DNA of 64,000 nt from Strobilurus pachycystidiatus (taxonomy: Eukaryota > Basidiomycota > Agaricomycetes > Agaricales > Physalacriaceae): the NCBI GenBank assembly GCA_019915135.1, contig JAHLMK010000006.1, positions 1,426,001-1,490,000 of the forward strand, in the 5' to 3' direction. The notes beneath the pieces are model-generated. The model did not search any database. It was not told the origin of the DNA and saw only the letters and a program-made list of their open reading frames with translations. Position numbers and translations under genes: made by a program. This document shows, one piece after another, positions 15,100-53,548 of this stretch. Numbering within the stretch: the first letter of the stretch is position 1; every line of letters begins with the position of its first letter.

Positions 15100-15560
15100 C
15101 TTCGTCGACTGCAAAGCCACCACCGGGAAGATATTCTTCGCGCATAGAACCCTGCACCGAAAGCTCGTCTGTGATTGGGTTCGAGGTAGAGCCTACCGCA
15201 ATGTCGTCGTTATTATTGAGTTCGTGATCACCACTGGGCAGATGCTGCCCATACATGGGGCTCGGGAGTGAACCTGAACCGTTGCCAAGCCCGTCCATAG
15301 AGTCGTCTTCGTCGACTGCATAGCCACCGCCGGGAAGATATTCTTCGCGCATGGAACCCTGCACCGAAAGCTCGTCTGTGATTGGGTTCGAGGTAGAGCC
15401 TACCGCAATGTCGTCGTTATTATTGAGTTTGTGATCACCACTGGGCAGATGCTGCCCATACATGGGGCTCGGGAGTGAACCTGAACCGTTGCCAAGCCCG
15501 TCCACAGAGTCGTCTTCGTCGACTGCATAGCCACTACCGGGAAGATATTCTTCGCGCATG
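15100..15560 (-). repeat. Tandem 207-bp coding repeat (LPGGG units)
   Basis: Two nearly identical units of 207 bp (69 codons; compare 15221 with 15428), flanked by more diverged copies out to about 14.9 and 15.9 kb. Each encodes EEYLPGGGYAVDEDD, then GLGNGSGSL, then QHLPSGDHELNNND. In-frame length and near identity point to recent duplication in a coding region. Confidence 0.8.
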
Positions 15561-17803: not shown

Positions 17804-19635
17804 TGACACGCTTTATGCGCGCCTGAGCCTAGAAACCGAGAATTTTGCGATTTCTAGATAAGACTCGAAGCCGAAATGCACGATACATCTAACGAGAGAC
17901 CATAAGATTGCCAGTGATAATACGGAGACCTCATTAGGGCAAGAATGAGCCTCCAGGAGAAATTCATCTTCGAATATCACCATCCAAAGTGCCCGCTTGA
18001 TTTATCAAGTCAACATCACGTACGCATTCTTAAAGAGGACTCGTCTAAGAAACGAACTCGAGTTCCAAGTAATTCGGACTCGACTTTGTCAGTATTGTTC
18101 ATAGACGATTAGAGTTCGATTAGCTCACTTCCTGATGATAAGTAGAATGGGGTTAAGCTACAGAATGGTCTAGGTCAGCATAAATGGGGATGAAAGCCCA
18201 GTAATGTTATCACACGATACAACTATCCCCTTGGAATTCTAAGTCTAGAACCCACGATAGCACAAAATCGAGTAACAGCCGAGCTATTCGAAGAAGCCAA
18301 TCAAGATAAAGATGATCAAGTGTTCTTCATGAATAATCCGCAGTACGCCAAGAGCGTTAAGAATCAAGAAGCCAAGCTTCTTCAGATCTCAGGTGATTAA
18401 ATCTGACCTGAAATCAGTAGAGATTGGAACAAGCAGACAGATTGCGAACAACAAGTCAATGATCTATCATGGATCTTAGAGTGGATTCTTAAGCGAAATG
18501 AAGCTCTAGACTCAATCAGATAATCGAGACTGAATTGGTGACGCAATCTGAAGAATCCGAGTCGCAAAGAAGCATTCAGAACAATTAAGAGCCAAGAGAA
18601 GACGAACCCCATGTGATAGATTCGACCGATAGCACGCAAGGATGTTGCAATCCGAGCTTGAAATTAGTCAACGTGGATCAACTCTAGAGGGTTTGTCATG
18701 AGTAAACTGGCATAATAAGGAAATGGAAGCGCCTAGACTGGTGTCTACAGCGCGGAAATTAACTCCAAGTGGCTATTAGTTAGTAAGTTAAGATTAGTGT
18801 ACAGTAGGGACCCGTTTGTATAAAAAGAAGTGTCGATACAGTATAGTAGTTTAGTTTAGTGACCCGCAGCCACGAGCCCACAAAGCTCTACTGTAGTAAT
18901 CTAACTCTGTACAAAATCGAATTCGATTTGCACGCACCCAAAGAAACTCGAATTCGAGTCAAACCTAAGAACAAAAGAACAAACCTAACGCACTAAGAGC
19001 AAGGGTTTAGAACAAAAGTGAACTTAATCGAAGAGCAAAGTTCCTTGAATTCAACGTACTAGAGGCGGTGTTTTTGAGCATAGTATCTCCCTAGAGACAC
19101 TACAGAGACTTTGCAGTCTGAGCCAGCCTTTCCCTAGAGAGGACCGTTCAGTCGCGAAAAGCGTTAACCAGCATAACCTCTTGAGAGTTCAAGTGCAATT
19201 CGAGCACGATTTGGTCTAAAACCCACGCAAACACTAAAACTCAAAGAATAAGCTCCTACCGAGGTTATAAGAAACATACCAAGTGTGGCAATAGACTATT
19301 GTGTTCTTGATACAACCCCTCCAGCGCGAGGATTGAGAAAGTCGCATAGTTTAAGTTCAGTCAGAGGCTTGTGTATTGTTCCCTGAAAACCAGACGATTT
19401 GTCAATCGGTCAAAATCCCTACCACCCCCTTCAAACTCGCACTTTGTGCACACCTACGTTTCTGTTACGCAAGAACCTTGTTTTTCAAGTGTAGTGTTGT
19501 AGTAAATCAAGCTCGATTTTCTATTGCAAAAACCCAATATCCCAAAACCGCAGAAACCTTACTCTCATTCGGAGTATTAAGAGTTGTGTTGTTTGTTAGG
19601 TGTGATTCTACGCCTCGAAAATAACGTGCACATCA
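17804..19635 (+). repeat. 5' LTR of E2
   Basis: Begins TGACACGCTTTATGCG and ends GTGCACATCA; repeated at 33701-35531. TATA at 18819, so U3 is about 1.0 kb and R-U5 about 0.8 kb. The small open frames inside lack any support as genes. Confidence 0.92.
18819..18826 (+). promoter_or_regulatory. TATA box of the E2 5' LTR
   Basis: TATAAAAA 1015 nt into the LTR, conserved in the 3' LTR and, as TATAAAAG at the same distance from the end, in E1. Confidence 0.6.
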
Positions 19636-19641
19636 ACTTTT

Positions 19642-19660
19642 TGGAGCCCACCGCGAGGGG
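19642..19660 (+). other. Primer-binding-site-like stretch of E2
   Basis: TGGAGCCCACCGCGAGGGG begins 6 nt after the LTR with TGG, the complement of a tRNA CCA end. Conserved in E1 at 1690. The tRNA was not identified. Unlike E3 and E4, I found no self-complementary match at the predicted RNA start. Confidence 0.5.
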
Positions 19661-20074
19661 GTCCTATATTTTGATCAACCAAATCGGTGGTCTTTATATC
19701 CAAAAACGTCTAAGAAAGGCAGACAGTCTGCTAAATACACCCGAAGTCAACTAGACGCAAACCCGGAAACACCACCGGTTGCTAGTGGATCTCGAATTGC
19801 TCCTGAAGAATCTGAACTACAAAGTGTCCAAGTAGGAACTAGAAGTTTAAGAAAGAACAGACCACGAGTAGGAGCCCTATTCAACGATCAACCAGAAAAA
19901 GTACGGGAAAAAGTTCGCAGGTTAGCTGAGCATCCCCCGCCAATTCGAAGAAGATTAGCTCCTAGAAAGAGTTATTCTGATCTTGAACAATCCGAACTTG
20001 AATTTCTACTTTTAAGCCGAGCCTTAGAAAATTACCAAGATCTTTTAAACATTCCTACGTTTATACCTCCAAGA

Positions 20075-21457
20075 ATGACTACTGTTCGAGCGCTAGTCAT
20101 CGATGAATTTCCTTCTCTGAAGTGGAGAGAAGACATAAAAGACAAAAAGATACCCAAGTATGGCACCAGCAATGCGCCAAACTTTAATGGAAAATCGGAA
20201 AACATAGCTGATTTTCTAAGGGTGATTGAACAAATCATTGGCGAGTCTGGTATTACGGATGAAGGCACGATGATTGAAATCGCGTGTAACTTTGTGCCAG
20301 AAACCATTCGAGACCAATGGTTAAATATGCCTACTTTCATTAGAGGAGAGTGGAAAGAATTCAAGTCGGCTTTGTTGTCTAGCTATAACAGAGGCAAAGA
20401 TGACACCAAGTATTCTCTAGACGATCTAGAGGATGCTATTGTCAAATTCGAAAAACGGCCTGTTGACCACAAAGACAGGTGGAATGTTTTTCAAAGAGAA
20501 GTACTGCACATATTGCGGTACTTAGTTAAGAAGGGTGAAATCACGGACAAGAAAGCCGTGGAAAGAATCCAAGACTGTGTAACAAATGCAGTTTGGGCCA
20601 GTACTACTGGTCATTTAAGAACCAACAAACCGGCAGCAACAACGGTGTTGGATTGGTACAACAACATCACCAATGTTGTAGGCGCTATTACCAGCGTGTT
20701 GGAAGAAACGGCAGTCTATAGGACCAAAGGGTCCCACAAGACAGAAACCGGTACTTCAAGAGTCAAGACTGAAGATTTGACGGATACCAATAGTGCACTC
20801 AATGCACTAAGGGATATCCTGATACAATCAGAAAAAGCTAGAGAAAAAGATCGAGTAGAGATGGCGCGCGAGAAGGAAGAAAATCAAAAGAATCATCAAC
20901 AATTCCTTGATACAATCAACGCTTCCTTGTTGAATGCGAGAACAATGAATTACCAAGATACCAATTTGATCTCGAATTTTGTTCAATCGGCACCTATCAC
21001 TGTTCAACCGCCTATGGGTACGAACAGATCCAACCAGATACCCTATACGGGAGGGAACACTGCAAATCCGACTCGAATTTTGCAGAACCCTAACTGTCTG
21101 GTACCAGCTGGTCAAACTACGTCGTATTCACAACCCGGGCGCTGCTTTTTCTGTGAAGAACCTGGTCATATGCGTGATCAGTGTAAGAAAAGATTTGACT
21201 TGCAAACGGAAGGTTGGCTAGTGATTACGGAAGCCAACTGGGACTTTTTCAACAATGGCCTTCCGATTTTGAGAAAGGAAAGGGCTGGTGGAAAGTCACC
21301 TTTACAACAGGTTCTTAAGTACAAAGAAGATAGTCTTCGAGAAGTTAAAGCGCAAACCACTATTGGGCAAACGGATGACTTCGCACCAGAAGACATGCGT
21401 TTGGATACCTCGTATGCAAATACTATGGTACCTCACAATCAAGGGGGTTTCAACTGA
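20075..21457 (+). CDS. gag protein of E2
   Basis: 460 codons from the first ATG to TGA. The N-terminal half (to about residue 220) is helical and capsid-like and matches E1 gag. Residues about 245-285 are charged and coiled-coil-like (EKAREKDRVEMAREKEE). A CCHC zinc knuckle CFFCEEPGHMRDQC lies near residue 355. It should form the particle and bind element RNA. The same frame is open without any ATG back to 19625, reading DQPNRWSLYPKTSKK and SYSDLEQSELEF. The real start may therefore lie upstream, through splicing or a non-AUG codon. The protease frame follows, shifted by -1. Confidence 0.85.
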   Translation: MTTVRALVIDEFPSLKWREDIKDKKIPKYGTSNAPNFNGKSENIADFLRVIEQIIGESGITDEGTMIEIACNFVPETIRDQWLNMPTFIRGEWKEFKSALLSSYNRGKDDTKYSLDDLEDAIVKFEKRPVDHKDRWNVFQREVLHILRYLVKKGEITDKKAVERIQDCVTNAVWASTTGHLRTNKPAATTVLDWYNNITNVVGAITSVLEETAVYRTKGSHKTETGTSRVKTEDLTDTNSALNALRDILIQSEKAREKDRVEMAREKEENQKNHQQFLDTINASLLNARTMNYQDTNLISNFVQSAPITVQPPMGTNRSNQIPYTGGNTANPTRILQNPNCLVPAGQTTSYSQPGRCFFCEEPGHMRDQCKKRFDLQTEGWLVITEANWDFFNNGLPILRKERAGGKSPLQQVLKYKEDSLREVKAQTTIGQTDDFAPEDMRLDTSYANTMVPHNQGGFN

Positions 21458-21462
21458 GCTTG

Positions 21463-22602
21463 ATGAAGGAAGAAGATACAGTATCTTTACCGGAAAGCTC
21501 ATACGCTGTTAATACTCGAAGTCAGAATAAGAATCAGAACGGTTTACAATTCGAAACCGAAATGCCTAAGACTACAGTACCGACTAAGACGGTATGGCCA
21601 AGACAGAAGGTCACGGTAGAAATACCAAAGCGACCTACTACAACAGTTCAACCTAAGCAAGTTAGCTTTGAAGATAAAGGTGAAGAAGACAGTTCATCTG
21701 ACGAAGAGTCAGAAGGTGGGGAAGTTGAAAAGCAAGTAAAAGACGCTGCTAATCAACCAGAACCAAAAATCGAACTCGATTTACCTAAATCTTCCACGGT
21801 AGATTCAACTCTACCTAAAATAGAAAAGTTCAAGTCGTACAAAAGAAAATCGGAAATCGATTTGCTTCTTGAAGAAAATCCTCAATGGAAAGAAGCTTGG
21901 AAGGAACTTTTACCAGAGAAGTTACTTGCAACTAACATTGAGTGGCGAAAGAACCTAGAGAAATTGTTAAAGACAAGGAATGTTAAGACTACCTCTAAGC
22001 ATGTCTATTCGATTTCGCAAATCGAGTCTGAAGAGGTCCCTAAAGGGTCAATAGTCGTACAAGATCCTATAGAACAATTTTTCAACACGACGCAATTCCA
22101 AGGACCATACCATGTCTCTAAGTTGTACATGGCACCAGAAAGTGTAGACCTCAGAACCCTATGGTTAAGAATCAACCATGGAAATCGAAAAGAGTGTCTC
22201 CTAGACGGGGGATCACAGATTGCCTCGATGTCTCTCAAGACAGCATTCGAGCTCGGTTTAGCGTACGACCCAAGTTTTAAGATCACTATGGAAAGTGCAG
22301 ATAAAGGAAGAACGGTAACATTAGGCTTAGCGCGAAATGTACCGGTAAACTGTGAAGGAATTGTGTATTACCTTCAGTTTCACATTCTACAAGATCCTGC
22401 CTATGACATTCTACTGGGTAGACCGTTTGAGACTGTGTCTCAAGCAAGCCTACAAACGTCGGCGGCCGGTCTAACCACAGTAACTGTTGTAGACCCAGGG
22501 AATGGTCAAAGAATGACTTTACCCACTTATGCAAGGGGTCAGATACCAAGTCATCAAACTAAGGCTGAACCCGTGGGTTTTCACCCAAACTCGAGGACTT
22601 GA
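21463..22602 (+). CDS. Retropepsin-type protease region of E2
   Basis: Open frame of about 380 codons, -1 relative to gag, starting just after the gag stop. The first half is an acidic/basic linker with a segment shared with E1 (ENPQWKEAWKELLPEKLLATN). The aspartyl protease active site is LLDGGSQIASMS near residue 250, followed by the C-terminal protease motif DILLGRPF near residue 325. DGG replaces the usual DSG/DTG; the same occurs in E1 (VDGG). It overlaps the next frame by a few bases at 22599, again -1. It would cleave Gag and Pol; no start of its own is needed if made by frameshift. Confidence 0.8.
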   Translation: MKEEDTVSLPESSYAVNTRSQNKNQNGLQFETEMPKTTVPTKTVWPRQKVTVEIPKRPTTTVQPKQVSFEDKGEEDSSSDEESEGGEVEKQVKDAANQPEPKIELDLPKSSTVDSTLPKIEKFKSYKRKSEIDLLLEENPQWKEAWKELLPEKLLATNIEWRKNLEKLLKTRNVKTTSKHVYSISQIESEEVPKGSIVVQDPIEQFFNTTQFQGPYHVSKLYMAPESVDLRTLWLRINHGNRKECLLDGGSQIASMSLKTAFELGLAYDPSFKITMESADKGRTVTLGLARNVPVNCEGIVYYLQFHILQDPAYDILLGRPFETVSQASLQTSAAGLTTVTVVDPGNGQRMTLPTYARGQIPSHQTKAEPVGFHPNSRT

Positions 22603-23198
22603 ACGAATATCAAGGAGAGTTGGCATTGGTGATTGAGAAGGGTCTGAATGGTGAAATTAAGATTAAGCAAATGTATGTTCCAAATGGTGGGCAGGACACG
22701 TTTGACCCAGAAGCAATAACTAGTCGGTACCTTCGAAAATCCTCTGATAGAGTGAATCAACTAGTAAAACCAAGTCGAAATCAGTATCGATTTATGAAAC
22801 AAGGAGTGGAACCATTTATGGTAACACCACCTAGTAAATCGAATTCGAATTTCCCTACTAAAGAAGTATTTGGTTTTAAGAAGTTGTTCGATATTCAAAA
22901 AGAGAAAATCAATTTGGACTTGCCAGAAATCAAAGCCATGTCTACTATGGACATGTTTTATGGCGTACCTAATGGACTAGAAGAAGTGTTCAGCAATTTC
23001 AAGGTATCAATGCCTATAGATTATGTTGGACAAGCAAGAAAGGAATTCCTTTCGAATATCAAGGAAGAAAGACGTAGTCGGGGAGTATTTGCTACAAAGA
23101 AATATAAACCCGTACACTTGAAGACCAAGGCTCATTTAGGAACCTTACCAGAAGAATTTCGGATTCAACGACATATTGTAGGAGATCCCTTCAAATGA
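22599..23198 (+). pseudogene. N-terminal pol fragment of E2; RT onward deleted
   Basis: About 200 codons resembling the start of the E5 pol ORF: VIEKG..GEIKIKQMYVPN, FYGVPNGLEEVF, LKTKAHLGTLPEEFRIQRHI, then GDPFK and a stop. In E5 the same point continues through a proline-rich link into the RT. Here everything after it (RT with YxDD, RNase H, integrase) is gone. Upstream genes remain open, so the deletion looks specific to the polymerase part. Confidence 0.8.
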
Positions 23199-23521
23199 AA
23201 CAGTCCGTATCCTCCTATAATGATCTAGGAAGTGAGACGGAGCCAATCGGTCAATTTGGGGCCAAACGGAGTATTTTGCCTTTTCTGGCGCGGAAAATGA
23301 TCCAATCGACGATCGGACTTCAGATTTGGAATCCTGGCATCGATATCTACCAGAATCACTTTTCAAAGTGAAAAACGGTCTATTCCTTACTGTCGGTCTA
23401 ATGGGGTAAGGAAAGTTTAAAATCGATGGGGGCCAATTCAAGTTTGATTTGACCTGGGTACATTTGGACAAGTAAGAAACATAATTGTCATAGTAAAAAA
23501 AAGCTTCAGAGCTTAGTAAAG
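23199..23521. other. E2 non-coding stretch between pol fragment and solo LTR
   Basis: No gene. It may hold the deletion junction of pol and part of the upstream region of accessory gene 1. Contains a run of A near 23495. Confidence 0.4.
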
Positions 23522-23935
23522 GCGTCGGGCCTATTCGTCTATAGCGAGGGCGCACGAGGCAACGACTGGAGAGCGGTGTAAAGGGTGGTGTATTGAATCC
23601 CGGGGGAAAGACAACGGTTCTCTGAAGAACTACTCTACTGACTACTGACTCTTTTATACAGTTCCCGACGCCCGACGCCCGATGGGCGCGGGTGCGCCCC
23701 TCTGACTCATTCCCGAGTCATCGCACGAGTCATCGCGCCATCCCGCCCGTGATTGGTCGGGAGCGCGCCCTATCCCGCCCGATCCCGCTTTCCCGTCAGC
23801 CGAGCTCCGCCACCATGTGCTACCGTCGGACGGCCGTCGGATAGATCCCGACGATGGGCGCGATACCGTTGCTCCCGCCCGCGCAGGCGTCGCCTTCGAT
23901 CGGCTAGGCGTCGGTGGCGCAGTCAAGTCATGACA
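23522..23935 (-). repeat. Solo LTR of the E3 family inside E2
   Basis: Nearly identical to the E3 LTRs (39493-39904, 46111-46529) from GCGTCGGGCC to the end GTCATGACA, but missing the outermost TGTCA. Flanks TAAAG on the left and GAAAG on the right agree in four of five bases, consistent with a decayed 5-bp duplication. Strand given as for E3. It ends 20 bp before the TATA box of accessory gene 1. Confidence 0.85.
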
Positions 23936-23955
23936 GAAAGCGATAATCGGTGTCG

Positions 23956-23963
23956 TATAAAAG
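23956..23963 (+). promoter_or_regulatory. TATA box of accessory gene 1 in E2
   Basis: TATAAAAG 113 bp before the ATG at 24076. With a pyrimidine-rich stretch (23987-24001) between them, this is a good internal RNA polymerase II promoter separate from the LTR. Confidence 0.55.
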
Positions 23964-24075
23964 CTGGGTCTTCGAGTCTGAAAAACTCTTTTTCCCCCCC
24001 ACGACGCCTACCACTCGCACTACGACCCTCGATTTTGATTTCCACCTTTTCAACCTCGAATTTCTTTCCACCACC

Positions 24076-25164
24076 ATGCCCATGAAAGACATCGTAGCCG
24101 CTATGGACCAGACTCAAAACAAGGGACAGCTTAGGGTTGGCGGAGTCAACATTACGAAGGGCCACAACTTCTTGTTTTTGGGCCGGAAACATGTGGACCC
24201 CCTCATTTATGTCCCCGTCTTCTCCACACAAGTCACTGCAGCTCAGTTGTGGTACTTCCCGGATTCGTTGCGCAAGCTAGCGCCCAAACACCATTTCTAC
24301 GAATTCGCGGCTCGATATGCTAGCACCATCAATCCGCTCGACTTCCAACTGGAATTCGAGATCGAAAAGGTCGATGCCCTGCTTTTCAAAGCCTACGTGC
24401 TATGGTTCGTTTGGACGCTTGCACAAGGAGAACCGGAGCGGGAAGATGAAATCGACATTGAGTGGATGGTTCAAGAATACGAGGTTTTGCTGAGCTCGGT
24501 AAAGATTCAAGAATAGACAAGATTCGGACCGAAGCTAATAAAACCTTCTAGCCGCAACTTGTTTTGAAACAGATGCGAGAAATCGCAGAAGAAAAAGAGT
24601 GGCCTCTGGAACGGCCTACAGTGTTCAATGAAGAGGTAAGTAAAGAAATTCGAACGCGAATTCCTTACTTAACAAAGATAAGATTTTCTTTGACGATGAA
24701 GACGACGAGTCCGCCTCAGAGACGGACAGCGAAGATCAAGAGTCGGAGTTGACAACCAGAAACACGACCCCGAAATCCTCCACACCCCTTTCCACGCCCA
24801 AGCCTAGACCTCGACCCACGCCGTTGAAGTCTGCCGAAGCGAAGGCAAGGATGGAGAAAGAAAAAGGGAAGCCAGCTAGAGCTGAGACACCGGTAAGAAA
24901 ATCGACTTTGAATATCTTCAATTTGAACTAGATTTTCTTATGCCCTATCCAGCGCACCCCAATAGCTTCCACCTCCAAGCAAGCGTTGGAACCCGAACCA
25001 GGAAATTCGCCTTCGAATTCCCTGCCAACGCCCAAGGCCCTTTCCCATTCCCCTCAGCCAGCGCCTAAACGAATTCGAAAGCGAAAACGTGCCGCGACCC
25101 CAGTGGAGGAGGAAGAGGAAGCGCCAGAGCCCAATAAACCGAAGACCAATTCGAAGCCGAAATC
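24076..25164 (+). pseudogene. Accessory gene 1 (acc1) of E2, 5' part: helical domain and Ser/Pro/Lys linker
   Basis: Exons 24076-24498, 24552-24635, 24683-24892 and 24953-25164 join in phase 0 at GTAAAG..CTAG, GTAAGT..TAAG and GTAAGA..CCAG. The product starts MPMKDIVAAMDQ. It has an alpha-helical domain of about 140 residues with an aromatic-rich end (AYVLWFVWTLAQ), a helix (QMREIAEEKEW), an acidic patch (FFDDEDDESASETDSEDQE) and a Ser/Thr/Pro/Lys linker with basic RIRKRKRA. The frame is cut by E4 after KPKS and resumes at 29679 with a cysteine cluster. It corresponds in position to acc1 of E5. No database family recognised; a nuclear DNA-binding role is inferred from the cysteine cluster. 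Confidence 0.65.
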
Positions 25165-26048
25165 TGTCATGACTCGGTTGTGGACCTGTCACGAGATCGC
25201 GCACGAACTATAGATTGGGTGCGCCACATAGGAGAGAACTTATCCCGAAGAACAGGTCGCGCCATCACGGGAGTTGCCGATGGAACGCGATCAGATCCCT
25301 ACGCGCCTCGCCGCGCCTCGCTAGCCGGACCAACGTCACATCCGTCGGCCGCCTCCCCTCGATTCCCGCCACTCCGTACGAGCGACGCCCCATTGGGTCG
25401 AGGAATGACTCAATGATCGCTATCTTCTGATCAGTCCCGCATGGCATGGGCGGCGGCCCGCCCTATCCCGCTTCATCCCGCCTTATCCCGCCCATCGTCC
25501 AATCAGCGGTGCTCGATCTAGCGCGCCTTCCTTGCTCGATCAAAGGTACCATGCGCTACCGCAGCACATCGCTCCCGACGCGTCGGGAGCGCTCCCGACG
25601 GAACCTTCGAGAAGAGGAGTTATTCATCAAGAGGTCGACGTATAAATACAGACGCTCTTTGTAGTAGATAGCCAGACTTCGTCCTTATCAAGTTTCCTTC
25701 CGCATTCTCTTGCCGGATACTCTGACTCCCTCTGAGCAAGGGCTCCCCCCATGCCCTCCCTCGGTGACTCCGGTATCGCCCCCCACTCCTCGAACGAAGG
25801 ATCTCAATGCGCCACATCTCGGACCGGGTCCGATGAAGCGCGCAACACCAGGAGACGGGGTCTCCTGGGTGTTCACTCTCTGGGCGATACGGAGGAGCAT
25901 CCGTCGAGGTCCTCCGCGATCCCTCCCAAGCGACTGGACGGAAGCGTCCCGGAGATATGCGTGTTGTGCCCGCAGGAAAGCCACGGTTGGAGCGTAGAGG
26001 CGCGCCATCGTGAGCGAGTCCTTGTCACGGCGGGATCAGGTCGTAACA
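25165..26048 (+). repeat. 5' LTR of E4
   Basis: Starts TGTCATGACTCGGT, ends GGTCGTAACA. Contains TATAAATA at 25641 and CCCGCC-rich sequence with CCAATCA near 25498. Confidence 0.92.
25641..25648 (+). promoter_or_regulatory. TATA box of the E4 LTR
   Basis: TATAAATA lies 33 nt before AGACTTCGTCCT (25674), the predicted RNA 5' end, which is complementary to the site after the LTR. Confidence 0.6.
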
Positions 26049-26707
26049 ATAGGACGAAGTCTCCCTACTGCCCGTACAACACCATATCAATAACTCAAGG
26101 CCCGTTCACAACAACTACTCTGGTACTCAGCACCACCTCGCACGAAGCTCCATCCCTCGATCCACTCGACCAAACCGACATACGGTTATTCTCCCAACTC
26201 CGATATATCTCCTCTCAGGTGACGATCTTACGCGACGAAGAGGAGGGGACACCACCCCACCTAGAAGTAACACGAAGGGTACTACGGATAATGGACGTGG
26301 TCCACCAAATATCTCGAACAGTGGAGGACTGGCCCCTCCTCCGTTCCTTTGTAAAAGGGTATACACTCGCCCTGGCAACATTCTCACAGATATCCGGGGG
26401 ACACCTCCCCGCCTCGCAACGACGAACCCGACGACACCTGCACCATTTCTCCCAGTACTACCTGGAGAAACCCCTTCGACGAATACGGTCCCCTGGGTTC
26501 ATCAGAGAACTTCACATCGAACCGATATACTCAATCGAATCACCATTGACTAGTAATGGAGTGGTTCGTTATAATCCTCTCTCAAAGGAACTCCAACGTC
26601 GTTCCCGTTTACAAAGACGCAATGCTCGAAACCCTTCCAACAGCGTCTGGCGCGAAATTCACTACGTCGACGACGTTGTATTCTTCCTCGACGAAAAAGA
26701 GGACTGA
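25751..26707 (+). CDS. E4 ORF1, starts inside the LTR, unknown protein
   Basis: 318 codons from an ATG in the R-U5 part of the LTR, across the priming site, into the interior. The LTR-encoded part is low complexity. The internal part reads as a helical protein (QTDIRLFSQLRYISSQVTILRDEEEG, then MDVVHQISRTVEDW) with an Arg-rich patch and ends EIHYVDDVVFFLDEKED. No gag zinc knuckle and no known family. The ATG lies about 77 nt from the predicted RNA start and is the first good one. It could be a highly diverged gag-like protein or host-derived; I cannot decide. Confidence 0.45.
   Translation: MPSLGDSGIAPHSSNEGSQCATSRTGSDEARNTRRRGLLGVHSLGDTEEHPSRSSAIPPKRLDGSVPEICVLCPQESHGWSVEARHRERVLVTAGSGRNNRTKSPYCPYNTISITQGPFTTTTLVLSTTSHEAPSLDPLDQTDIRLFSQLRYISSQVTILRDEEEGTPPHLEVTRRVLRIMDVVHQISRTVEDWPLLRSFVKGYTLALATFSQISGGHLPASQRRTRRHLHHFSQYYLEKPLRRIRSPGFIRELHIEPIYSIESPLTSNGVVRYNPLSKELQRRSRLQRRNARNPSNSVWREIHYVDDVVFFLDEKED
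26051..26062 (+). other. Self-priming type primer-binding site of E4
   Basis: AGGACGAAGTCT, two bases after the LTR, is a perfect 12-nt complement of AGACTTCGTCCT at 25674-25685, which is where RNA should start from the TATA box. This matches the Tf1/sushi mechanism, in which the 5' end of the element's own RNA primes minus-strand synthesis. Confidence 0.7.
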
Positions 26708-27187
26708 TGGGTTTTGCGCAACGCGCCCCCCCCATTTTCGGAAACAACATTTATTCGGCACGGACAACCCAGGACTCAGATAATTAGGCAATTCGACAGG
26801 GCCCCGCGTAACGAAAAACGGTCCTCAGAACCTCGGGGAGGTCGAACTGGAAAACGCGAAGAGAAATAGAGGGCTCCCACTCAGCGGAAGCGGTAACCCA
26901 ACCACTCGGCGATCAGGGCCGAGGGCCCGATCCCACGAACCGCGTTGCAATCAGTCGATCGCGACGCGTGAACGCGACAAGTTCCGACGCCTCACCAAAG
27001 GTCCTCGACCTAGGAGAATTGTCTCCTCGCTCGACCAACACCAAAACGACATCAAGACAGGTGCATAGATTTATAAAAAGTACAAGAGGCGCGGATCGAG
27101 AACTACTATCGAAGACGTATTGGGTCCATGCCCGTACCTATGCATTCAAAAAATCCCCACGACATCCCCTCGAAGCGACCACATCCC

Positions 27188-28001
27188 TCACCAACCCTGC
27201 GCCGAGTCCATCGACCGGGACCACTCCTCAAAAGTCATGTTCCAACGGGTCGCCGATCCTGGGGTCTCCTCCGCAGTCATGAACTCATGAAAACAGGCGG
27301 CAATGGCCGGATCCCGCTCCGACGCCCAAAGGATGGCGATGAGGCGACGGATGGAGAGGTGATCCCAAAGATAGCGAAGGATGAGGTCGAAGGCGTCGAC
27401 ACAGTACATCGTCGTGTCCGGCGCCGACCCAGGAAAGGCATTGACTAAAAAGTCCAAGGAAAACATCCCGGTTAGTAAAGTATCGCGAGGCGATAGACGA
27501 AAACCACACTGTGAGGGGCGAACAGGAGCCAAGCACAGGTCGAGAACGCCCGCAGGGTAGCCGAAGGAGACGGGCGCGTCAAAGCCCACCACGACAAGGG
27601 CGGACGAAAGAACACCCTCCCCAAATGTGCGATCGATGAGCAAAACAGGACGAACTAGGAAAACGACTCCGTTAAAACCAACCTCGGGGCCAAAAGGAAA
27701 AGAGGCTTACTAGTGAAGCCCATACCAAGGGATCAGTAATCTCTTTCGACGATGTCGAGGCCATTCGGAGGGCCTCGGTTATGCAACCGACGCAGCGCGA
27801 CCAGGCCTCCACGATCGCGGGTGAAGGACGAGCAATATCACCTCGCACCCAAACCAGGAAACCGTCCCGGGACAGCAAACGAATTCCGTTGACCACCAGC
27901 GGGGCCGACACGAAGAGAGTGCTCAAACGACGAGGGGTAGACACCCGCGGAGGAGTGGGCGAGCGAGTGGGCGAGCGCAACAACGAAGACACGGACGACA
28001 T
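27188..28001 (-). CDS. E4 ORF2, antisense two-exon gene, unknown protein
   Basis: Exon 28001-27711 (MSSVSSLLRSPTRSPTPPRV...) joins in phase 0 to exon 27654-27188 through an intron GTAAGC..CCTAG. Together about 250 codons of well-formed helical, hydrophobic protein (AIVEAWSRCVGCITEALRMA, DAFDLILRYLWDHLSIRRLI), ending DSAQGW and a stop. It runs antisense to the element and converges on ORF1, the same layout as the accessory genes of E2 and E5, though I see no clear sequence match to those. Function unknown. Confidence 0.5.
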
Positions 28002-28789
28002 GGCAGGGAAGGAATGAGGAAGGAATTGGACGCAGAAAGAGTTTTTGTACTCCAATCCCTTCCTGGAGGCCCTGCCGGGAATTACCTTCCCATCCCCCAG
28101 AATCAGGACGATTCCCGAATCAGAAAACTTTAAGCTTTGGACAGTTGGGACGAACCGGATTCTCGACATATATTCGACGGAGGCGCGCTAAGAACTTCCG
28201 CTGGATTAGGAAATTACCGTCCTCGAAAAGGACGATCCAGTATGAGAAAATGCCATCGGCAGAAGTTAACGACATCGGGGTCTGAGCGCGCGGCGTTCCA
28301 AACAGATCTCCAGGGAACGGCGATCATTGATAAGGCGCCTTGACGAAATCAGGCGTCGGGAAATCACTGGAGTACGACGGGATGCCTACGCCACCACTCT
28401 ATTCGGACTGTCCTATACCAAGCGGAGAGGCCTCCCGGCGTGAAGAGGCGTGCACGGCCATGTGACGAACGCGCCTGTAACCCACTCAAATCCAGGGACC
28501 CGCATTGTACCCGAAAGAAGTCACAGCTAAAAGAAGCGCACAGCCTTGGGCTCGTATCAAGAAACCAACGAACGTGCGGGCCCTTGTCCATTAAACTTTT
28601 GGTCTCCACCAAAATCAGCACTGGAGGGGGGATTCCCCAGAGAATCCCCAGGAGTATGACGCCCGTCACGTTGGAGATGACTCGACTGAATGTCCGACTC
28701 GGACTTGGTCCTTTCCCAAAATCGAAAAGGCGCTGCCTACGGAAGCTCCTCTTACGTTTCTCGGGACGAGAAACTTAAAGAGGGGATAT
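28002..28789. other. E4 interior, right part
   Basis: Probable promoter region of ORF2, then sequence with small open frames on both strands, for example 28440-28778 (+) and 28364-28669 (-). None has supporting structure. Ends with the polypurine tract AAGAGGGGATAT (28778-28789). Confidence 0.4.
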
Positions 28790-29673
28790 TGTCATGACTC
28801 GGTCGTGGACCTGTCACGAGATCGCGCACGAACTATAGATTGGGTGCGCCACATAGGAGAGAACTTATCCCGAAGAACAGGTCGCGCCATCACGGGAGTT
28901 GCCGATGGAACGCGATCAGATCCCTACGCGCCTCGCCGCGCCTCGCTAGCCGGACCAACGTCACATCCGTCGGCCGCCTCCCCTCGATTCCCGCCACTCC
29001 GTACGAGCGACGCCCCATTGGGTCGAGGAATGACTCAATGATCGCTATCTTCTGCTCAGTCCCGCATGGCATGGGCGGCGGCCCGCCCTATCCCGCTTCA
29101 TCCCGCCTTATCCCGCCCATCGTCCAATCAGCGGTGCTCGATCTAGCGCGCCTTCCTTGCTCGATCAAAGGTACCATGCGCTACCGCAGCACATCGCTCC
29201 CGACGCGTCGGGAGCGCTCCCGACGGAACCTTTGAGAAGAGGAGTTATTCATCAAGAGGTCGACGTATAAATACAGACGCTCTTTGTAGTAGATAGTCAG
29301 ACTTCGTCCTTATCAAGTTTCCTTCCGCATTCTCTTGCCGGATACTCTGACTCCCTCTGAGCAAGGGCTCCCCCCATGCCCTCCCTCGGTGACTCCGGTA
29401 TCGCCCCCCACTCCTCGAACGAAGGATCTCAATGCGCCACATCTCGGACCGGGTCCGATGAAGCGCGCGACACCAGGAGACGGGGTCTCCTGGGTGTTCA
29501 CTCTCTGGGCGATACGGAGGAGCATCCGTCGAGGTCCTCCGCGATCCCTCCCAAGCGACTGGACGGAAGCGTCCCGGAGATATGCGTGTTGTGCCCGCAG
29601 AAAAGCCACGGTTGGAGCGTAGAGGCGCGCCATCGTGAGCAAGTCCTTGTCACGGCGGGATCAGGTTGTAACA
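28790..29673 (+). repeat. 3' LTR of E4
   Basis: 884 bp, same ends as the 5' LTR; about eight substitutions relative to it, several C/T at CpG. Confidence 0.92.
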
Positions 29674-30048
29674 AAATCCTCCACTAGCCGCCCGTCCAAA
29701 GCGGACAAGCACGGCAAAGTGTTGGACAACAAGGCGATGCAGAAGAAGATCAACGTGGATCGCAAGTGTCTCACCTGCGAGCAGCGAGGGCAAGAGTGTA
29801 CCTGGGAGTATATGCTGAATCAGCGGGACCACCCAGATACCGTCAAGACAAAGACTTGTGTATCTTGCGACTGTTGCCGGGTCAAAAGGTACACTTGTTC
29901 ACCGCCCAAGCGCCGCTACGATTACTTCAAGCACAAATCCAAGAAGGATGTCGAATTGGACAAGGCGGCTGAAGAGTTGACGAAGGCAAAAGAAGAGATC
30001 GACAAGCTTAAGAAGAAGTTGAAGAAGGCGAAGAAAGCGAAGGAGTGA
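29674..30048 (+). pseudogene. Accessory gene 1 (acc1) of E2, 3' part: Zn2Cys6-like cluster and coiled coil
   Basis: After the AAATC duplication the acc1 frame resumes (STSRPSKADKHGK). It has a cysteine cluster: CLTC, then six residues, C, then 19 residues, CVSC, then nine residues, C (29768-29910). This C-x2-C-x6-C-x19-C-x2-C-x9-C array resembles the fungal Zn2Cys6 binuclear cluster with a longer middle loop. The E5 homologue has the same spacing with a 17-residue loop. A strongly basic/acidic coiled coil (DKAAEELTKAKEEIDKLKKK) ends the protein at 30048. In known Zn2Cys6 proteins a coiled coil after the cluster mediates dimerisation. DNA binding is inferred. Confidence 0.7.
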
Positions 30049-30312
30049 TTCGAGCTCGATTTTCTAAAATAGACAATCGGACTAGTTTTACTTACTGGAC
30101 TTTAACTTTTTCCTTTTACAAACACGCATTTCTTGTAGACTGTAAAATTTTTACTTGACGCTTCTAACGCTTTGAAGAACGAAAAAGATTAAGATGCAAA
30201 TAAGAAATTCAAGATCGAATTGTAGAAACTTGATGTGTATAAAAGACATGTTGATTTTCAACAATTCGGTACAAGGAATTCAAAGTTAAAGGGAGACATA
30301 TAAGAAATGTAA

Positions 30313-33300
30313 CTACTCCCTCCAATGCGGCTCTATACAAAAGTGTCGAAACAAAGGACTGTTACCTCTATTATACAGCCTAGTATAAAAAGTATAAAGT
30401 TGTTCAGGCAACAAGGAAGCTACAACGTGTTGTAAGAGGCGAATGTCCGCAGCAGAGGCAGTTGACCAAGTAATTTCCCAAAAACGTTTAGGTATATTGG
30501 GAAAATCCTGATCGATAAGCCTGTTAAGAAAGAAGTCAGAAATTCGAATTCGAGTTTCTAACAAATGCTTACGTGGGATATATAGGGCCTGCAGCATTAA
30601 GACCTTGGCGAAGAGTAGAGAAACTGAACTCGCGATCACGAAATAGTCCTTGACTACCAGGCATAGGGTCAAGAACCTGGTTTTCATAGAAACGTGGAAT
30701 CCAAGTAATCAGCTCGCGAATGTCCACTGGAATGCCTCGCGTGGAGGGAGGGATGCTGCGCATCCATTCGACGTCCTCGGGTGACATTATGGTGTTCAAG
30801 TACCGAGGCAATGATTGTTCGGTAGAAAAGAACGCGGTTTCCTATGAAGTAATAAGCAAATCGATCTCGAATTTCTAAGCCAAGAAATAACATACCAAAG
30901 ATTGCATGGTAACCGCTAGGAACTTCTCTCGAAATTCACCAAATGACAAGCGAATAATCGATGAAGGTAAGATATGGGGAAGAGTAACCCCATCCAATCC
31001 GCGAAGCGGTTCCTCGTGAAAGAAGGACATCACAAGATGCCAACAGAGAATGTACATGGACAGAAAGCTATTTTCCACACCACGAGCAGTAACGGGGGCA
31101 ACATGTCGCCATAAGTTACTGTAACGTCGCTAGGAGGATAGTCAGAGAAATTTGAACAAGGAATGCTAGCTCGATTTTCTCACCAGCACATACACCATAT
31201 ACCGCAAGGTAGGAACGTCCAAGTTACCGTGGTGTCCACCAAAGAAAAGATGACGATCCGTATGGAAAGCCGTCTCTCGATGATCCACGTCGCCCAAGCT
31301 ACCGTCGGGCTCTCGTTCCACCATCACAAAGTCGCGGTGTACGCTATAAAGATCCAGAGCGGACGCAACCGCTAATTCAGCCTCGAGAAACACGGCAACA
31401 TCGTCGGGAATAATGGCGAAGCTGGAGTGAAGATTGCGGAACCTAAGTTCGCAGAGAAAAGGGAAATTCATCTGAGTCATGGTGATGAATTTCCACCACT
31501 CAAAAAGATCAAATTTATAAGAATCGAGAAGAAAGGTACCAAACCGATTAAGAAAAGAACCAAGACCTAAGTAAAGAAACCAATAGGAGATAATCGAACC
31601 CGAATTTCTCGGGTCCGATTATCGAATCCAAGATCAAGAGTAAGAATGTCTATATGCAGACCGACAGATAATAATACATGCGCGAGTAGACTAAAAAGAT
31701 AAAGGTCCGTCGCGTAAGCCCCAAGCCTCCGGTACACTAGTCACAGTTCAAGCCAAGATTTCCGACTAGTTACTTTGTAAAGAACAAGTCATCAATTACT
31801 TATGCTAAGAAGTATCAATGATGACTTGGCTCCCGATGATCTAAGGGACCAAAGAATCAGTCGCGGCCAGGTACAGGTCCCTCGTGCGCAGGAAGGTTTG
31901 AACCTCCCCGTGAGCCCTGTTCATGGTCAAGGACAACTCGTGGCGATAGCCGTGTTCCGCGGCTACCATCGACGCGGAAAGAGCCAAGTCCGCGGGAAGC
32001 GCAGCCAAGATCTGCATTCTGCGAACAATGGCAGAACTGGCACCTTGGTAAGCGTTGACCAACTGAGCGGCTGTCAAGAAAACAAATTCGAGTTAGATTA
32101 ACCCAAAATCGAAATCAAATTTGTTACTCACTAGATGACAACTGATCAATGAGGACGGGCTCGATGTTAAACTCAGCGGGTTTAAGAGCCTTGGCCATCC
32201 TCTTGGATTCAGGAAGAGCAACAGTGGCCTTGCGCTTGGGAGCCGTCTCCAACTGAGCAGTAGGAGTGGATCCCGACGTCGCCACAGCCTTGTGATACAA
32301 GGAAGAATTAGTATCCAGGCCGGGTACTTCACAATAGTAAAGATATTTTACCGAGCGAGCAGACTATATAAAAGTCAAAAATCGAGCTCGAAAAGCTAAA
32401 GAACCAATAACTCACGGCTTCAGAGGCTGTAGAAACGGGAGGTGTAGCAACCTCGACCACTTCTTCATCGCTATCCTCTTCGTCGGAAGACTCCACGGAG
32501 AGCTGTTTAAGAAAAGCAGCCAGATCAGCCTCGTAATCTAGACCGAAAAGGCATTAGAAGCTTACTTCGGAGTCGGAAGAGTTTACTTCACCCATTTCTG
32601 AATGATCATCAGCCCACTGGAAGCCATTAGTAAAAGAAGATTTACTAATGTCGCCAGAGGCAAATCAAATAGGATCGTCCAGAACGGTGGCAGAAGAAGA
32701 AGCCTTCTATAACATAAGACATAAGAAATTCGAACTTGAAATACAGAAAATCGAAATACGAACCAGAACTTTGAGCTTGTTCTTACCCTTGGGTTCGGGA
32801 GATTTAGCCTTCTCCTTACCCTTGGAAGAGGAAGCCTCGATGAGTTTCTTCCATTTGGGATGGAGGGGATGGATCGAAGGAAGACTGGCAGCTTCCGCCG
32901 CGATAGTACCCTTCTTGGTGCAAGTCATGACGAACGCGTTAAGCACATTGGCCAGATTAACGGTATGCAAGTGAGGGCTGACACCCAACTCGGAAACCGC
33001 CAAACCTAAGAACGATCGCAGATTGCAGAAGAACGTGGCGAGCTTCTCGGGATAAATGCAACCGGAGACGTTGTCCTTGGGAAGGTTCGCTCCCTTATAA
33101 AGATTTTAGAAAATCGAGCACGAATTCATAAGAAGAGAAATTTGACTCACAAGAACCTTGATGATGACCATGTCCAAAGACGCGGCCTTATCCTTGGCGG
33201 AAGCCTTGGAGCGGTCCATGTACTCGACCGATTTAAGGACCAACGGACAGAGGCTGTTGTAAAGCGTCAAGACGGCGGGAACCAAACCCGTAGCAGGCGG

Positions 33301-33441
33301 ATCCCAATATTTAATATGGATGAAGAGCGCTTTGCCATCAGCGAGGCGACGTTCAACTAGCTCGGGGACGGTGTCGGGAGCCTCATCAGGGATAAGGTTG
33401 ACGATTCCGGTCCACGATTTCTTGGAAACAAGAGAAGGCAT
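30313..33441 (-). CDS. Accessory gene 2 (acc2) of E2, antisense multi-exon gene
   Basis: Start ATG at 33441 (MPSLVSKKSW), stop at 30313. Exons encode an N-terminal domain (LFIHIKYWDPPATGLVPAVL, LRSFLGLAVSELGVSPHLHT), a Lys/Ser-rich acidic middle (KGKEKAKSPEPKGKNK, MGEVNSSDSE), then PGLDTNSSLYHKAV..APKRK, FNIEPVLIDQL, HRDFVMVEREPDGSLG, NLDVPTLRYMVYVLV and a C-terminal helical part (FWEITWSTASAADIRLLQ). The last blocks match the gene at 61856-64000 in E5. Introns are short with GTGAGT/GTAAGT-type donors. One TGA near 32660 may be intronic or a defect. It converges on acc1 with 264 bp between them. Function unknown. Confidence 0.6.
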
Positions 33442-33691
33442 TGTGAGAGGTGTAGAAGAATTTCGAGGGTGAAATGGTTAGCAGGTGCTGGGGCAAATCG
33501 ACCAGAAACCGCCGACTATTTAACCAAGTTGCAAAGATAACACGAAGACCCAGCGAGCGCTTTGTTCGTGCCAACTGGAGTTGGGATTGCATCCGTGCAG
33601 ACAAAACCCGAAGAGAGAACCAGAAAAATAAGCGAAATGAATTACGGTTCAGGGTGAAGATCTTGATGTTGCGGACAACATATCGAAAGTT

Positions 33692-33700
33692 AAAGGGAGA
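33692..33700 (+). other. Polypurine tract of E2
   Basis: AAAGGGAGA directly before the 3' LTR start TGACACGC; the expected plus-strand primer. Confidence 0.7.
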
Positions 33701-35531
33701 TGACACGCTTTATGCGCGCCTGAGCCTAGAAACCGAGAATTTTGCGATTTCTAGATAAGACTCGAAGCCGAAATGCACGATACATCTAACGAGAGACCAT
33801 AAGATTGCCAGTGATAATACGGAGACCTCATTAGGGCAAGAATGAGCCTCCAGGAGAAATTCATCTTCGAATATCACCATCCAAAGTGCCCGCTTGATTT
33901 ATCAAGTCAACATCACGTACGCATTCTTAAAGAGGACTCGTCCAAGAAACGAACTCGAGTTCCAAGTAATTCGGACTCGACTTTGTCAGTATTGTTCATA
34001 GACGATTAGAGTTCGATTAGCTCACTTCCTGATGATAAGTAGAATGGGGTTAAGCTACAGAATGGTCTAGGTCAGCATAAATGGGGATGAAAGCCCAGTA
34101 ATGTTATCACACGATACAACTATCCCCTTGGAATTCTAAGTCTAGAACCCACGATAGCACAAAATCGAGTAACAGCCGAGCTATTCAAAGAAGCCAATCA
34201 AGATAAAGATGATCAAGTGTTCTTCATGAATAATCCGCAGTACGCCAAGAGCGTTAAGAATCAAGAAGCCAAGCTTCTTCAGATCTCAGGTGATTAAATC
34301 TGACCTGAAATCAGTAGAGATTGGAACAAGCAGACAGATTGCGAACAACAAGTCAACGATCTATCATGGATCTTAGAGTGAATTCTTAAGCGAAATGAAG
34401 CTCTAGACTCAATCAGATAATTGAGACTGAATTGGTGACGCAATCTGAAGAATCCGAGTCGCAAAGAAGCATTCAGAACAAATAAGAGCCAAGAGAAGAC
34501 AAACCCCATGTGATAGATTCGACCGATAGCACGCAAGGATGTTGCAATCCGAGCTTGAAATTAGTCAACGTGGATCAACTCTAGAGGGTTTGTCATGAGT
34601 AAACTGGCATAATAAGGAAATGGAAGCGCCTAGACTGGTGTCTACAGCGCGGAAATTAACTCCAAGTGGCTATTAGTTAGTAAGTTAAGATTAGTGTACA
34701 GTAGGGACCCGTTTGTATAAAAAGAAGTGTCGATACAGTATAGTAGTTTAGTTTAGTGACCCGCAGCCACGAGCCCACAAAGCTCTACTGTAGTAATCTA
34801 ACTCTGTACAAAATCGAATTCGATTTGCACGCACCAAAGAAACTCGAATTCGAGTCAAACCTAAGAACAAAAGAACAAACCTAACGCACTAAGAGCAAGG
34901 GTTTAGAACAAAAGTGAACTTAATCGAAGAGCAAAGTTCCTTGAATTCAACGTACTAGAGGCGGTGTTTTTGAGCATAGTATCTCCCTAGAGACACTACA
35001 GAGACTTTGCAGTCTGAGCCAGCCTTTCTCTAGAGAGGACCGTTCAGTCGCGAAAAGCGTTAACCAGCATAACCTCTTGAGAGTTCAAGTGCAATTCGAG
35101 CACGATTTGGTCTAAAACCCACGCAAACACTAAAACTCAAAGAATAAGCTCCTACCGAGGTTATAAGAAACATACCAAGTGTGGCAATAGACTATTGTGT
35201 TCTTGATACAACCCCTCCAGCGCGAGGATTGAGAAAGTCGCATAGTTTAAGTTCAGTCAGAGGCTTGTGTATTGTTCCCTGAAAACCAGACGATTTGTCA
35301 ATCGGTCAAGTTCCCTACCACCCCCTTCAAACTCGCACTTTGTGCACACCTACGTTTCTGTTACGCAAGAACCTTGTTTTTCAAGTGTAGTGTTGTAGTA
35401 AATCAAGCTCGATTTTCTATTGCAAAAACCCAATATCCCAAAACCGCAGAAACCTTACTCTCATTCGGAGTATTAAGAGTTGTGTTGTTTGTTAGGTGTG
35501 ATTCTACGCCTCGAAAATAACGTGCACATCA
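33701..35531 (+). repeat. 3' LTR of E2
   Basis: 1831 bp. Differs from the 5' copy by about ten substitutions, mostly transitions, and one missing C. Ends CACATCA followed by the ACGT duplication. Confidence 0.93.
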
Positions 35532-46075: not shown

Positions 46076-46098
46076 AGTCGTTGGGTCGTCGAAAGGGG

Positions 46099-52785: not shown

Positions 52786-53548
52786 TGTATGGAAAGTGCG
52801 GACAAGGGACAAATCAGTACCTTGGGATTGGCTTGTAATATACCTTTTGACTTTGAAGGTATTGTCTATTATCTCCAGCTGCATGTGTTGCAGGATCCCG
52901 CCTATGAGGTCCTACTGGGATGACCTTTCGAGATCGTTTCCAACTAGAGATCCCCACGAGTTATTCAATGATCTGAACCTTGATCCTCAGAGAGGATATC
53001 CTCTCCAAAATTAAATAAACCTTGATCCTTTCAATGATCCTTGAGTTCGGATCATTGAGCAGTTCAAATCAAGGATCATTGAATGATCCTTCTATGTTTG
53101 GGTGATAGATGTCTGATGTCTGATAGAATATGCATGCATAATCATCAATATGTACCATTGAAAGCTGTTTAAGTACTGTGGAAGCTTTTTTGTACTTGTA
53201 TTTGCATAAAGTTAATGATTCAACAATGATCATTCAATGATTTTTACCTTCAGTGAATGAACCTTGATCCTTACAATGATCCTTAGGTTCAGATCATTGA
53301 CATGTTAATGATTTAAACTTTGGATCAAAGTCAAGGTTCGGATCAAGGATATTCTCTACTTCTAATGACTCGTGAAGATCTCTATTTCCAACCTGGTCAT
53401 CACGAACCTTCCCAACGAGAACGCGATAGGGACCCTCATGGATAACACTAATGGGAAGAAATTATCATTACCTTCTTATTGTTGAGGTCAAATTCCAAGG
53501 CATATGATTCCAGGAGGACAAACGGGTTTTCACGGGAACCTAAGGACA
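52786..53548 (+). pseudogene. Protease C-terminal remnant of E5, split by MITE-C
   Basis: Left of the MITE: MESADKGQISTLGLACNIP, then YYLQLHVLQDPAYEVLLG and a TGA, matching the E2 protease (MESADKGRTVTLGLARNVP, DPAYDILLGRPF). Right of the MITE: LVITNLPNENAIGTL to GFHGNLRT and stop, matching the E2 C terminus. The active-site half is absent. Confidence 0.75.
52945..53384. mobile_element. hAT-like MITE, family C (440 bp)
   Basis: Ends TAGAGATCCCCACGAGTTAT and (opposite strand) TAGAGATCTTCACGAGTCAT; perfect 8-bp duplication TTTCCAAC (52937-52944, 53385-53392). The interior carries many CAATGATC and TTGATCC motifs in both orientations; no coding. Confidence 0.92.

What the first reader, a model, noticed from the sequence alone, without database searches (positions are those of the whole stretch)
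20075..33441. Giant Gypsy-type element family carrying two conserved extra genes, one of them antisense
E2 (17804-35531) and E5 (52781-64000) share the order pol region, acc1 (+), acc2 (-, convergent), end of element. The acc2 proteins match in at least five separate blocks (for example LDVPTLRY, APKRK, F.[IV]EPV, RPDG[ST]L, W.I.WS.A) yet are strongly diverged. That argues the gene has been kept through element evolution and was not picked up once by chance. Standard Ty3/Gypsy elements have neither gene. Antisense genes near the 3' LTR are known from a few plant and viral lineages, but I do not recognise this one.
Basis: partly seen in the sequence, partly recalled or inferred. Interest (0 to 1): 0.87.

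Follow-up and report, generated by a model that had tools for sequence, protein, structure and literature searches.

The report
Mushroom retrotransposons with antisense gene
A lineage of large jumping elements in the genome of what is likely a mushroom-type fungus carries two extra protein genes kept by natural selection, one of them written backwards next to the element's end, and they would likely serve as helpers that control the element, as has been proposed for antisense genes of some plant elements and retroviruses.

Summary
The finding is real and larger than described. E2 (17804-35531) is a damaged copy: about 7.3 kb with RT, RNase H, integrase and one acc1 gene is missing, and a nested element splits the other acc1. 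Elsewhere in the same genome 15 LTR pairs span 20.3-20.8 kb. acc1 (sense) and acc2 (antisense, starting 198-260 nt from the 3' LTR) occur in three families (E2, E5, and a third, L030), in the same order and orientation. acc2 has 816-890 predicted residues in 10-12 predicted exons; dN/dS is 0.16 between E5 and a close copy, and 0.21 for acc1. 70 of 81 acc2 loci have an opposite-strand integrase upstream; no clear stand-alone host copy was found. acc1 has a six-cysteine cluster and a predicted long helix; acc2 has a conserved NLS-like motif; neither reaches a Pfam cut-off. Derivatives lacking acc1 and most of acc2 have multiplied, so the genes are not needed in cis. Best explanation: trans-acting nuclear regulators of the element, analogous to (not members of) plant antisense aORFs and HTLV HBZ. 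Unexpected extra: 25 of 26 evaluable insertions carry a 4-bp target duplication NCGN.

The parts
17804..19635 (+). 5' LTR of E2 (TG...CA); left flank ends in ACGT
19625..21457 (+). gag-like frame, 610 aa stop to stop, zinc knuckle CFFCEEPGHMRDQC (zf-CCHC E 0.0067, below Pfam cut-off)
21379..22602 (+). aspartic-protease region (gag-asp_proteas E 0.0021, below cut-off)
22569..23195 (+). first part of pol; the frame runs on for 1062 aa through RT and RNase H in copy c2, but is cut here
23189..23204 (.). junction of a deletion of about 7.3 kb (RT, RNase H, integrase and the first acc1 gene of copy c2 are missing in this copy)
   Evidence: eight of eleven copies (c2-c6, c8-c10) carry 7.2-7.4 kb here; c7 and c16 were fetched only in part, and c1 holds further insertions so that its stretch ended before
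23522..23935 (.). 414-bp LTR of another element, in place of about 315 bp found in copy c2
   Evidence: (99.5% to 46116-46529)
23936..25164 (+). acc1 (second copy), 5' part
25165..29674 (.). nested LTR element (885-bp LTRs, direct repeat AATC at its ends) splitting acc1
29674..30048 (+). acc1 3' part: CLTCEQRGQEC...CVSCDCCRVKRYTC cluster and charged, coiled-coil-like tail
30313..33441 (-). acc2, antisense; ATG at 33441 (260 nt from the 3' LTR), stop near 30313; 12 exons predicted in the matching stretch of copy c2
33701..35531 (+). 3' LTR of E2, preceded by polypurine tract AAAGTTAAAGGGAGA; right flank begins ACGT
53452..57417 (+). E5 pol remains: RT motif YIDD, RNase H (PF17919 E 3e-15), integrase; 69% identical to the pol of E2-family copy c2 over the frames compared
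58023..59814 (+). E5 acc1 (567-aa open frame from 58111; N-terminus in another frame)
61856..63850 (-). E5 acc2, downstream exons; first exon lies outside the window at 65584-65300

Best explanation
This is a lineage of LTR retrotransposons with Ty3/Gypsy-type pol, in three families of one genome, whose complete copies carry two genes under purifying selection beyond gag-pol, acc1 in sense and acc2 (predicted to contain introns) in antisense beside the 3' LTR, and the two proteins would likely act in trans in the nucleus as regulators of the element. Shown: anatomy, copy number, order and orientation, purifying selection, and spread of derivatives without acc1 and most of acc2. Inferred: acc2 is transcribed from, or from just inside, the 3' LTR; because it is antisense, its introns are not splice sites in the genomic RNA and so survive reverse transcription; its conserved basic motif (KRK-x6..8-[KR]R-x2-KA) takes it to the nucleus; acc1, with a six-cysteine cluster, basic linker and predicted helical tail, binds DNA or chromatin, plausibly as a dimer; together they set the level or timing of LTR transcription, and the derivatives borrow them from complete copies.
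For: Same order in three families. acc2 dN/dS 0.159 (521 codons), acc1 0.205 (452 codons); substitutions by codon position 20/8/51, and only the acc2 frame is free of stops in the compared exons (14-26 stops in the other frames of that strand, 8-34 on the other strand). 70 of 81 acc2 loci have an opposite-strand integrase upstream within 15 kb. acc2 ATG 260, 202 and 198 nt from the 3' LTR start in E2, E5 and L030. Basic motif in 4 of 4 acc2 types laid side by side. Cysteine cluster in the three acc1 proteins aligned and in L030. E5-family LTR pairs: 22 of 39 have integrase, acc1 and acc2 hits, 15 of these being 16.3-16.4 kb; 10 of 11.3-12.2 kb have no acc1 hit; 2 of 13.5 kb have acc1 but no acc2 hit.
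Against: No transcript, protein or localisation data. No Pfam or PDB match supports a function; Pfam Zn_clus does not match acc1. AlphaFold models were unusable (mean pLDDT 35 and 43). Derivatives without acc1 and most of acc2 multiplied, which equally fits genes with no role in mobility. acc1 of E2 is split between frames in copy c2 and may have sense introns (candidate sites for the first copy only), so intron survival may not need antisense orientation. Intron and exon mismatch between E5 and L033 are close (6.3% and 5.5%).
Confidence: 0.42

Rival explanations
1. acc1 and/or acc2 guide integration: they tether the pre-integration complex to CpG-containing DNA, which would explain the NCGN target duplications.
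For: 25 of 26 evaluable insertions in the three families have an identical 4-bp NCGN duplication, CpG being about 5% of positions; acc1 has a cysteine cluster of a DNA-binding look.
Against: Four of four derivatives examined that lack acc1 and most of acc2 also have NCGN duplications, so the preference may lie in integrase; supply in trans cannot be excluded.
Confidence: 0.18
2. acc1/acc2 counter host silencing (for example small-RNA or chromatin silencing) rather than regulate the LTR.
For: Kept under selection though dispensable in cis; wide divergence between families (predicted acc2 of E2 28-31% identical to the other two) fits an arms race as well as plain time.
Against: No similarity to a known suppressor in Pfam; no direct data.
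Confidence: 0.2
3. acc1/acc2 serve particle assembly, RNA packaging or cell-to-cell spread (an env-like or structural role).
For: Position between pol and 3' LTR, where env-like genes sit in other elements.
Against: No strongly hydrophobic segment in predicted acc2 (highest 19-residue Kyte-Doolittle mean 1.62-1.83); basic nuclear-type motif; antisense orientation is not that of env genes.
Confidence: 0.1
4. Passenger genes or chance open frames without function for the element.
For: Derivatives without acc1 and most of acc2 spread.
Against: dN/dS 0.16 and 0.21; conserved frames and some shared predicted intron positions across diverged families.
Confidence: 0.05

Closest known systems
[quoted passage not shown]
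   Same: Large Gypsy elements; conserved antisense ORF between pol and 3' LTR; nuclear or DNA-binding role suggested; recently active incomplete copies exist (PMC7264820 passages; PMC11963269 passages and Discussion)
   Different: Host likely a fungus; no TRP28 (PF04195) match; acc2 is split by many predicted introns; a sense gene acc1 lies upstream
HTLV-1 HBZ (antisense gene of a retrovirus, named in PMC11963269 passages)
   Same: Antisense gene beginning next to the 3' LTR (start in the LTR region recalled and from PMC7264820 passages), thought to regulate the provirus
   Different: No bZIP or other Pfam match; no transcript shown here; not a retrovirus
Fungal Zn(II)2Cys6 cluster proteins (PF00172)
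   Same: acc1 has C-x2-C-x6-C ... C-x2-C-x6..9-C followed by a predicted long helix
   Different: Spacer of 15-22 residues between the halves, an order of half-motifs that looks swapped against my recollection of Gal4-type clusters, and no match to the Pfam model
Giant LTR elements Ogre and Burro (PMC6431247 passages)
   Same: Total length around 20 kb or more, extra ORFs
   Different: The extra genes were not compared by sequence; host likely a fungus
Errantiviruses such as ZAM (PMC5408687 passages, one from its abstract)
   Same: Specific 4-bp targets (CGCG, TATA or ATAT there; NCGN here)
   Different: No env-like gene seen; the review calls sequence-specific integration exclusive to errantiviruses and their derivatives

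Membership tests
Ty3/Gypsy LTR retrotransposon | Paired LTRs, primer-site-like stretch and polypurine tract, target duplication | tested here: met
Ty3/Gypsy LTR retrotransposon | Order protease - RT - RNase H - integrase | tested here: met
   protease hits below cut-off, RT by YIDD motif only (RVT_1 not reported for the E5 frame), RNase H E 3e-15, integrase H2C2 (E 0.014) and SH3-like hits below cut-off; relatives carry precomputed RVT_1, RNase H, H2C2 and some rve domains
Chromovirus (chromodomain Gypsy) | Chromodomain at the end of integrase | tested here: not met
   none in the E5 integrase frame, the only one scanned; the unrelated element at 39611-42787 does have one
Retand-type plant elements | Antisense ORF between pol and 3' LTR | tested here: met
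Retand-type plant elements | TRP28 domain (PF04195) in the antisense protein | tested here: not met
   no PF04195; one protein was full length and two were only the first half; searches scanned single exons
HBZ-like antisense retroviral gene | Antisense message starting in the 3' LTR | not testable with these tools
   no RNA data; only the 198-260 nt distance of the ATG from the LTR
HBZ-like antisense retroviral gene | bZIP domain | tested here: not met
   with the same limits on length
Zn(II)2Cys6 fungal transcription factor | PF00172 match | tested here: not met
Zn(II)2Cys6 fungal transcription factor | Six cysteines in two CX2CX6-9C groups | tested here: met
   pattern recalled, spacer longer than recalled for typical members
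Errantivirus | env gene | tested here: inconclusive
   no env-like Pfam hit in the acc1 or acc2 proteins scanned; no dedicated search

The most novel reading that the evidence does not exclude
A fungal retrotransposon lineage has evolved its own two-gene control module: an antisense, intron-bearing gene fired from the 3' LTR and a sense cysteine-cluster gene (duplicated in one family) that together govern transcription and steer integration to CpG sites, with deletion derivatives living as parasites of the complete copies.
Probability: 0.13. Interest if true: 0.85.

Novelty: new variant of a known kind. Interest (0 to 1): 0.63.

Why it matters
[quoted passage not shown] Here a compact genome holds many near-identical copies, three diverged families, and natural derivatives lacking acc1 and most of acc2, or acc2 alone, which makes the role of such a gene directly testable. 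If acc2 regulates the element, antisense control would be a recurrent solution in plants, fungi and retroviruses. The NCGN target rule, if confirmed, adds a sequence-specific integration system outside the errantiviruses.

Tried and rejected
Homologues elsewhere: acc2 and acc1 alignments found nothing at E 0.01 and 0.001 among 7997 and 7996 scored candidates, whereas pol found 943 relatives among 6778 candidates; the organisms named in the 120 rows shown are Trametes versicolor, Mycena sanguinolenta, Meripilus lineatus and Moniliophthora perniciosa (Agaricomycetes by my own knowledge). The candidate lists for acc1/acc2 were full, and multi-exon genes may be poorly represented in such data, so this is no proof of absence. 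Viral contigs held no match to six pol patterns; no metagenome scan was open.

Stand-alone host gene: of the 11 acc2 rows without a nearby integrase, nine are LTR-bounded, truncated or rearranged element copies (two rows are the window's own E2; the others judged from LTR positions); C4:2555148 is a degraded remnant; C3:2783928 was not read. The 81 loci were collapsed by hand and hold at least three genes entered twice; searches scored only 62 of 325 and 82 of 411 candidates, so counts are lower bounds. The integrase list has 126 of the 138 rows; the 12 left out are mostly second fragments of the same place and weak hits.

acc1 as an ordinary Zn2Cys6 protein: no Pfam match. acc1a's C-terminus gave DUF7179 at E 0.0011, below cut-off; amphiphysin and Cdc24 PDB hits are at E 0.09-0.8; both set aside as coiled-coil or chance. 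Fold searches were not run because the models were poor. hhalign of acc1 with the cysteine-cluster ORF of a distant element: probability 5%, not counted as homology.
Full report
What is there. E2 occupies 17804-35531: LTRs of 1.83 kb, 99.4% identical, starting TG and ending CA, with ACGT on both sides, a primer-site-like stretch after the 5' LTR and a polypurine tract before the 3' LTR. It holds gag, protease and the first part of pol, then acc1 in sense and acc2 in antisense. Eleven other copies were fetched in whole or part. Eight of them carry 7.2-7.4 kb that the window copy lacks at 23195; the other three (c1 with further insertions, c7 and c16 fetched in part) could not show it. The window copy also has a 414-bp LTR of another element in place of about 315 bp, and a nested 4.5-kb element. 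Copy c2 (C1:3089195) shows the fuller plan: gag 610 aa, protease frame, a 1062-aa pol frame with RT and RNase H, an integrase frame of 246 aa, two acc1 genes, and acc2 in antisense. In other copies pol is one frame of 1304 aa. LTR starts of this family number 54; 23 pairs were drawn by position and 15 of them give 20.28-20.82 kb.

Three families. E5 belongs to a second family: 136 LTR starts, of which the first 100 were listed. A third (L030, C1:1079400) has 53 LTR starts. In both, acc1 is one frame of about 615 aa in many copies and acc2 lies in antisense, collinear with E2's. Pairwise identity of predicted acc2: L033 (E5 family) to L030 432 of 787, L033 to E2 213 of 748, L030 to E2 236 of 752 aligned positions.

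acc2 is a gene. In E5 against L033, 521 codons give dN 0.023, dS 0.147, ratio 0.159 (bootstrap 0.096-0.253); E5 against L030 0.224 and against E2 0.25, with synonymous sites near saturation. Substitutions fall 20, 8 and 51 at codon positions 1, 2 and 3, and only the acc2 frame is free of stops. Introns are predicted, not shown, and the prediction was helped by similarity to the E2 and E5 proteins: 9 in L033, 11 in L030, 11 in E2 copy c2. Two positions coincide in alignment column and phase in all three, four more in two of three, and three of those four have an E2 intron within 3 columns. Mismatch between E5 and L033 is 6.3% in introns and 5.5% in exons. acc1 gives dN/dS 0.205 (0.155-0.272, 452 codons); E5 against L030 acc1 gives 0.525, at high divergence.

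Where acc2 occurs. I collapsed the hits by hand to 81 loci; 70 have an integrase hit on the opposite strand upstream within 15 kb. Of 103 integrase hits of at least 60% identity, 71 had an acc2 hit downstream in antisense within 16 kb; 32 did not. By my comparison of the lists, 11 of these 32 have one when the third family's own acc2 is the query, and 7 lie in LTR pairs that one search shows as shortened. None of the 23 more distant integrases had an acc2 hit. acc1's cluster region found 47 and 63 matches; their neighbourhood was counted only inside the pairs. One marginal match (C2:2416680, E 0.008) was not followed.

A natural deletion series. Among 39 LTR pairs drawn by position from the 100 listed starts of the E5 family, 22 have integrase, acc1 and acc2 hits (15 of them 16.3-16.4 kb); 10 of 11.3-12.2 kb have integrase but no acc1 hit, four of them with an acc2 exon-1 hit; 2 of 13.5 kb have acc1 and no acc2 hit; 5 are otherwise incomplete. 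Nine loci, six of them inside those ten pairs, carry the same 60-64-residue stub of acc2 exon 2 (a capped list). Six derivatives differ by under 50 bp in length, and four of four examined have their own target duplication, so the shortened form has very likely moved as a unit. The genes are thus not needed in cis; the choice between supply in trans and dispensability is open.

CpG targets. Eleven E2-family elements (ten fetched, plus the window's), ten E5-family and seven third-family elements were read at both ends. Two third-family ones were not evaluable (one left side is a polypurine tract and so no junction; one LTR end was not found). Of 26 evaluable, 25 have an identical 4-bp duplication and all 25 are NCGN; the other has CCGT and GCGT. 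CpG makes up 5.1% of positions in the longer fetched loci and 6.0% in the window. As a contrast, the nested element 25165-29674 has AATC, and four short repeats at 782, 4929, 8429 and 14320 have 5-bp direct repeats without CG; the ends of two further LTR stretches (23522-23935, 39489-46530) were not resolved.

What the proteins look like. acc1: helical N-terminal part, basic linker, C-x2-C-x6-C ... C-x2-C-x6..9-C, long helix (residues 424-474 of E5 acc1, which hold the only confident part of a model with mean pLDDT 43). acc2: no Pfam family at E below 0.1, no PDB relative, a conserved KRK...[KR]R..KA motif, no strongly hydrophobic segment. A distant element family carries antisense ORFs, some with similar cysteine groups: the 439-aa one is in the 4 copies whose integrase is 41% identical, and not beside those at 39 and 42%. 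Homology of these to acc1 is not shown.

Known context. [quoted passage not shown] in Retand 97% of clusters encode a TRP28 domain predicted to bind DNA, and a regulatory role by analogy with retroviral genes is proposed (PMC11963269, passages and Discussion). A review of giant elements describes Ogre and Burro (PMC6431247, passages). Sequence-specific integration is called exclusive to errantiviruses and their derivatives (PMC5408687, passages). Searches for a fungal Gypsy element with an antisense gene, with cysteine-cluster accessory genes, or with CpG targets showed no such paper in the titles and abstract starts listed; apart from the four papers named, only listings were read, and the library lacks most subscription papers.

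Verdict. Real, in three families, under selection, not matched to a described family: a new variant of a known kind. The regulatory role is an inference.

Noticed in passing
17800-17803 and 35532-35535; flanks of 28 elements (L037-L090 and window): 4-bp target duplications of the form NCGN in 25 of 26 evaluable insertions of the three families, suggesting CpG-specific integration.
   Followed up: partly
L031:1538-4724 (C13:1091937-1095123): A distantly related Gypsy family has antisense ORFs with cysteine groups; the 439-aa ORF is in the 4 copies whose integrase is 41% identical, opposite the integrase each time.
   Followed up: partly
49712-52700: Tandem array of about 148-bp units shortly upstream of the truncated 5' end of E5.
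   Followed up: no
1-1678 and window numbering 65786-67450 (L029): E5-family LTRs: the window opens inside one (E1), and E5's 3' LTR lies just past the window, its last bases missing.
   Followed up: partly
4929-5393, 14320-14784, 64019-64481, 64739-65201; 782-1257, 8429-8904: Two kinds of short repeat (about 465 and 476 bp) with inverted-looking ends and, for the four checked (782, 4929, 8429, 14320), a 5-bp direct repeat each; two copies with a 257-bp spacer split acc2 of E5.
   Followed up: partly
39489-46530: A separate chromodomain Gypsy element on the minus strand with 0.41-kb LTRs.
   Followed up: no
12427-14148 and 14780-16072, minus strand: Two long frames full of internal tandem repeats (27- and 207-bp spacings), no credible Pfam family.
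   Followed up: no
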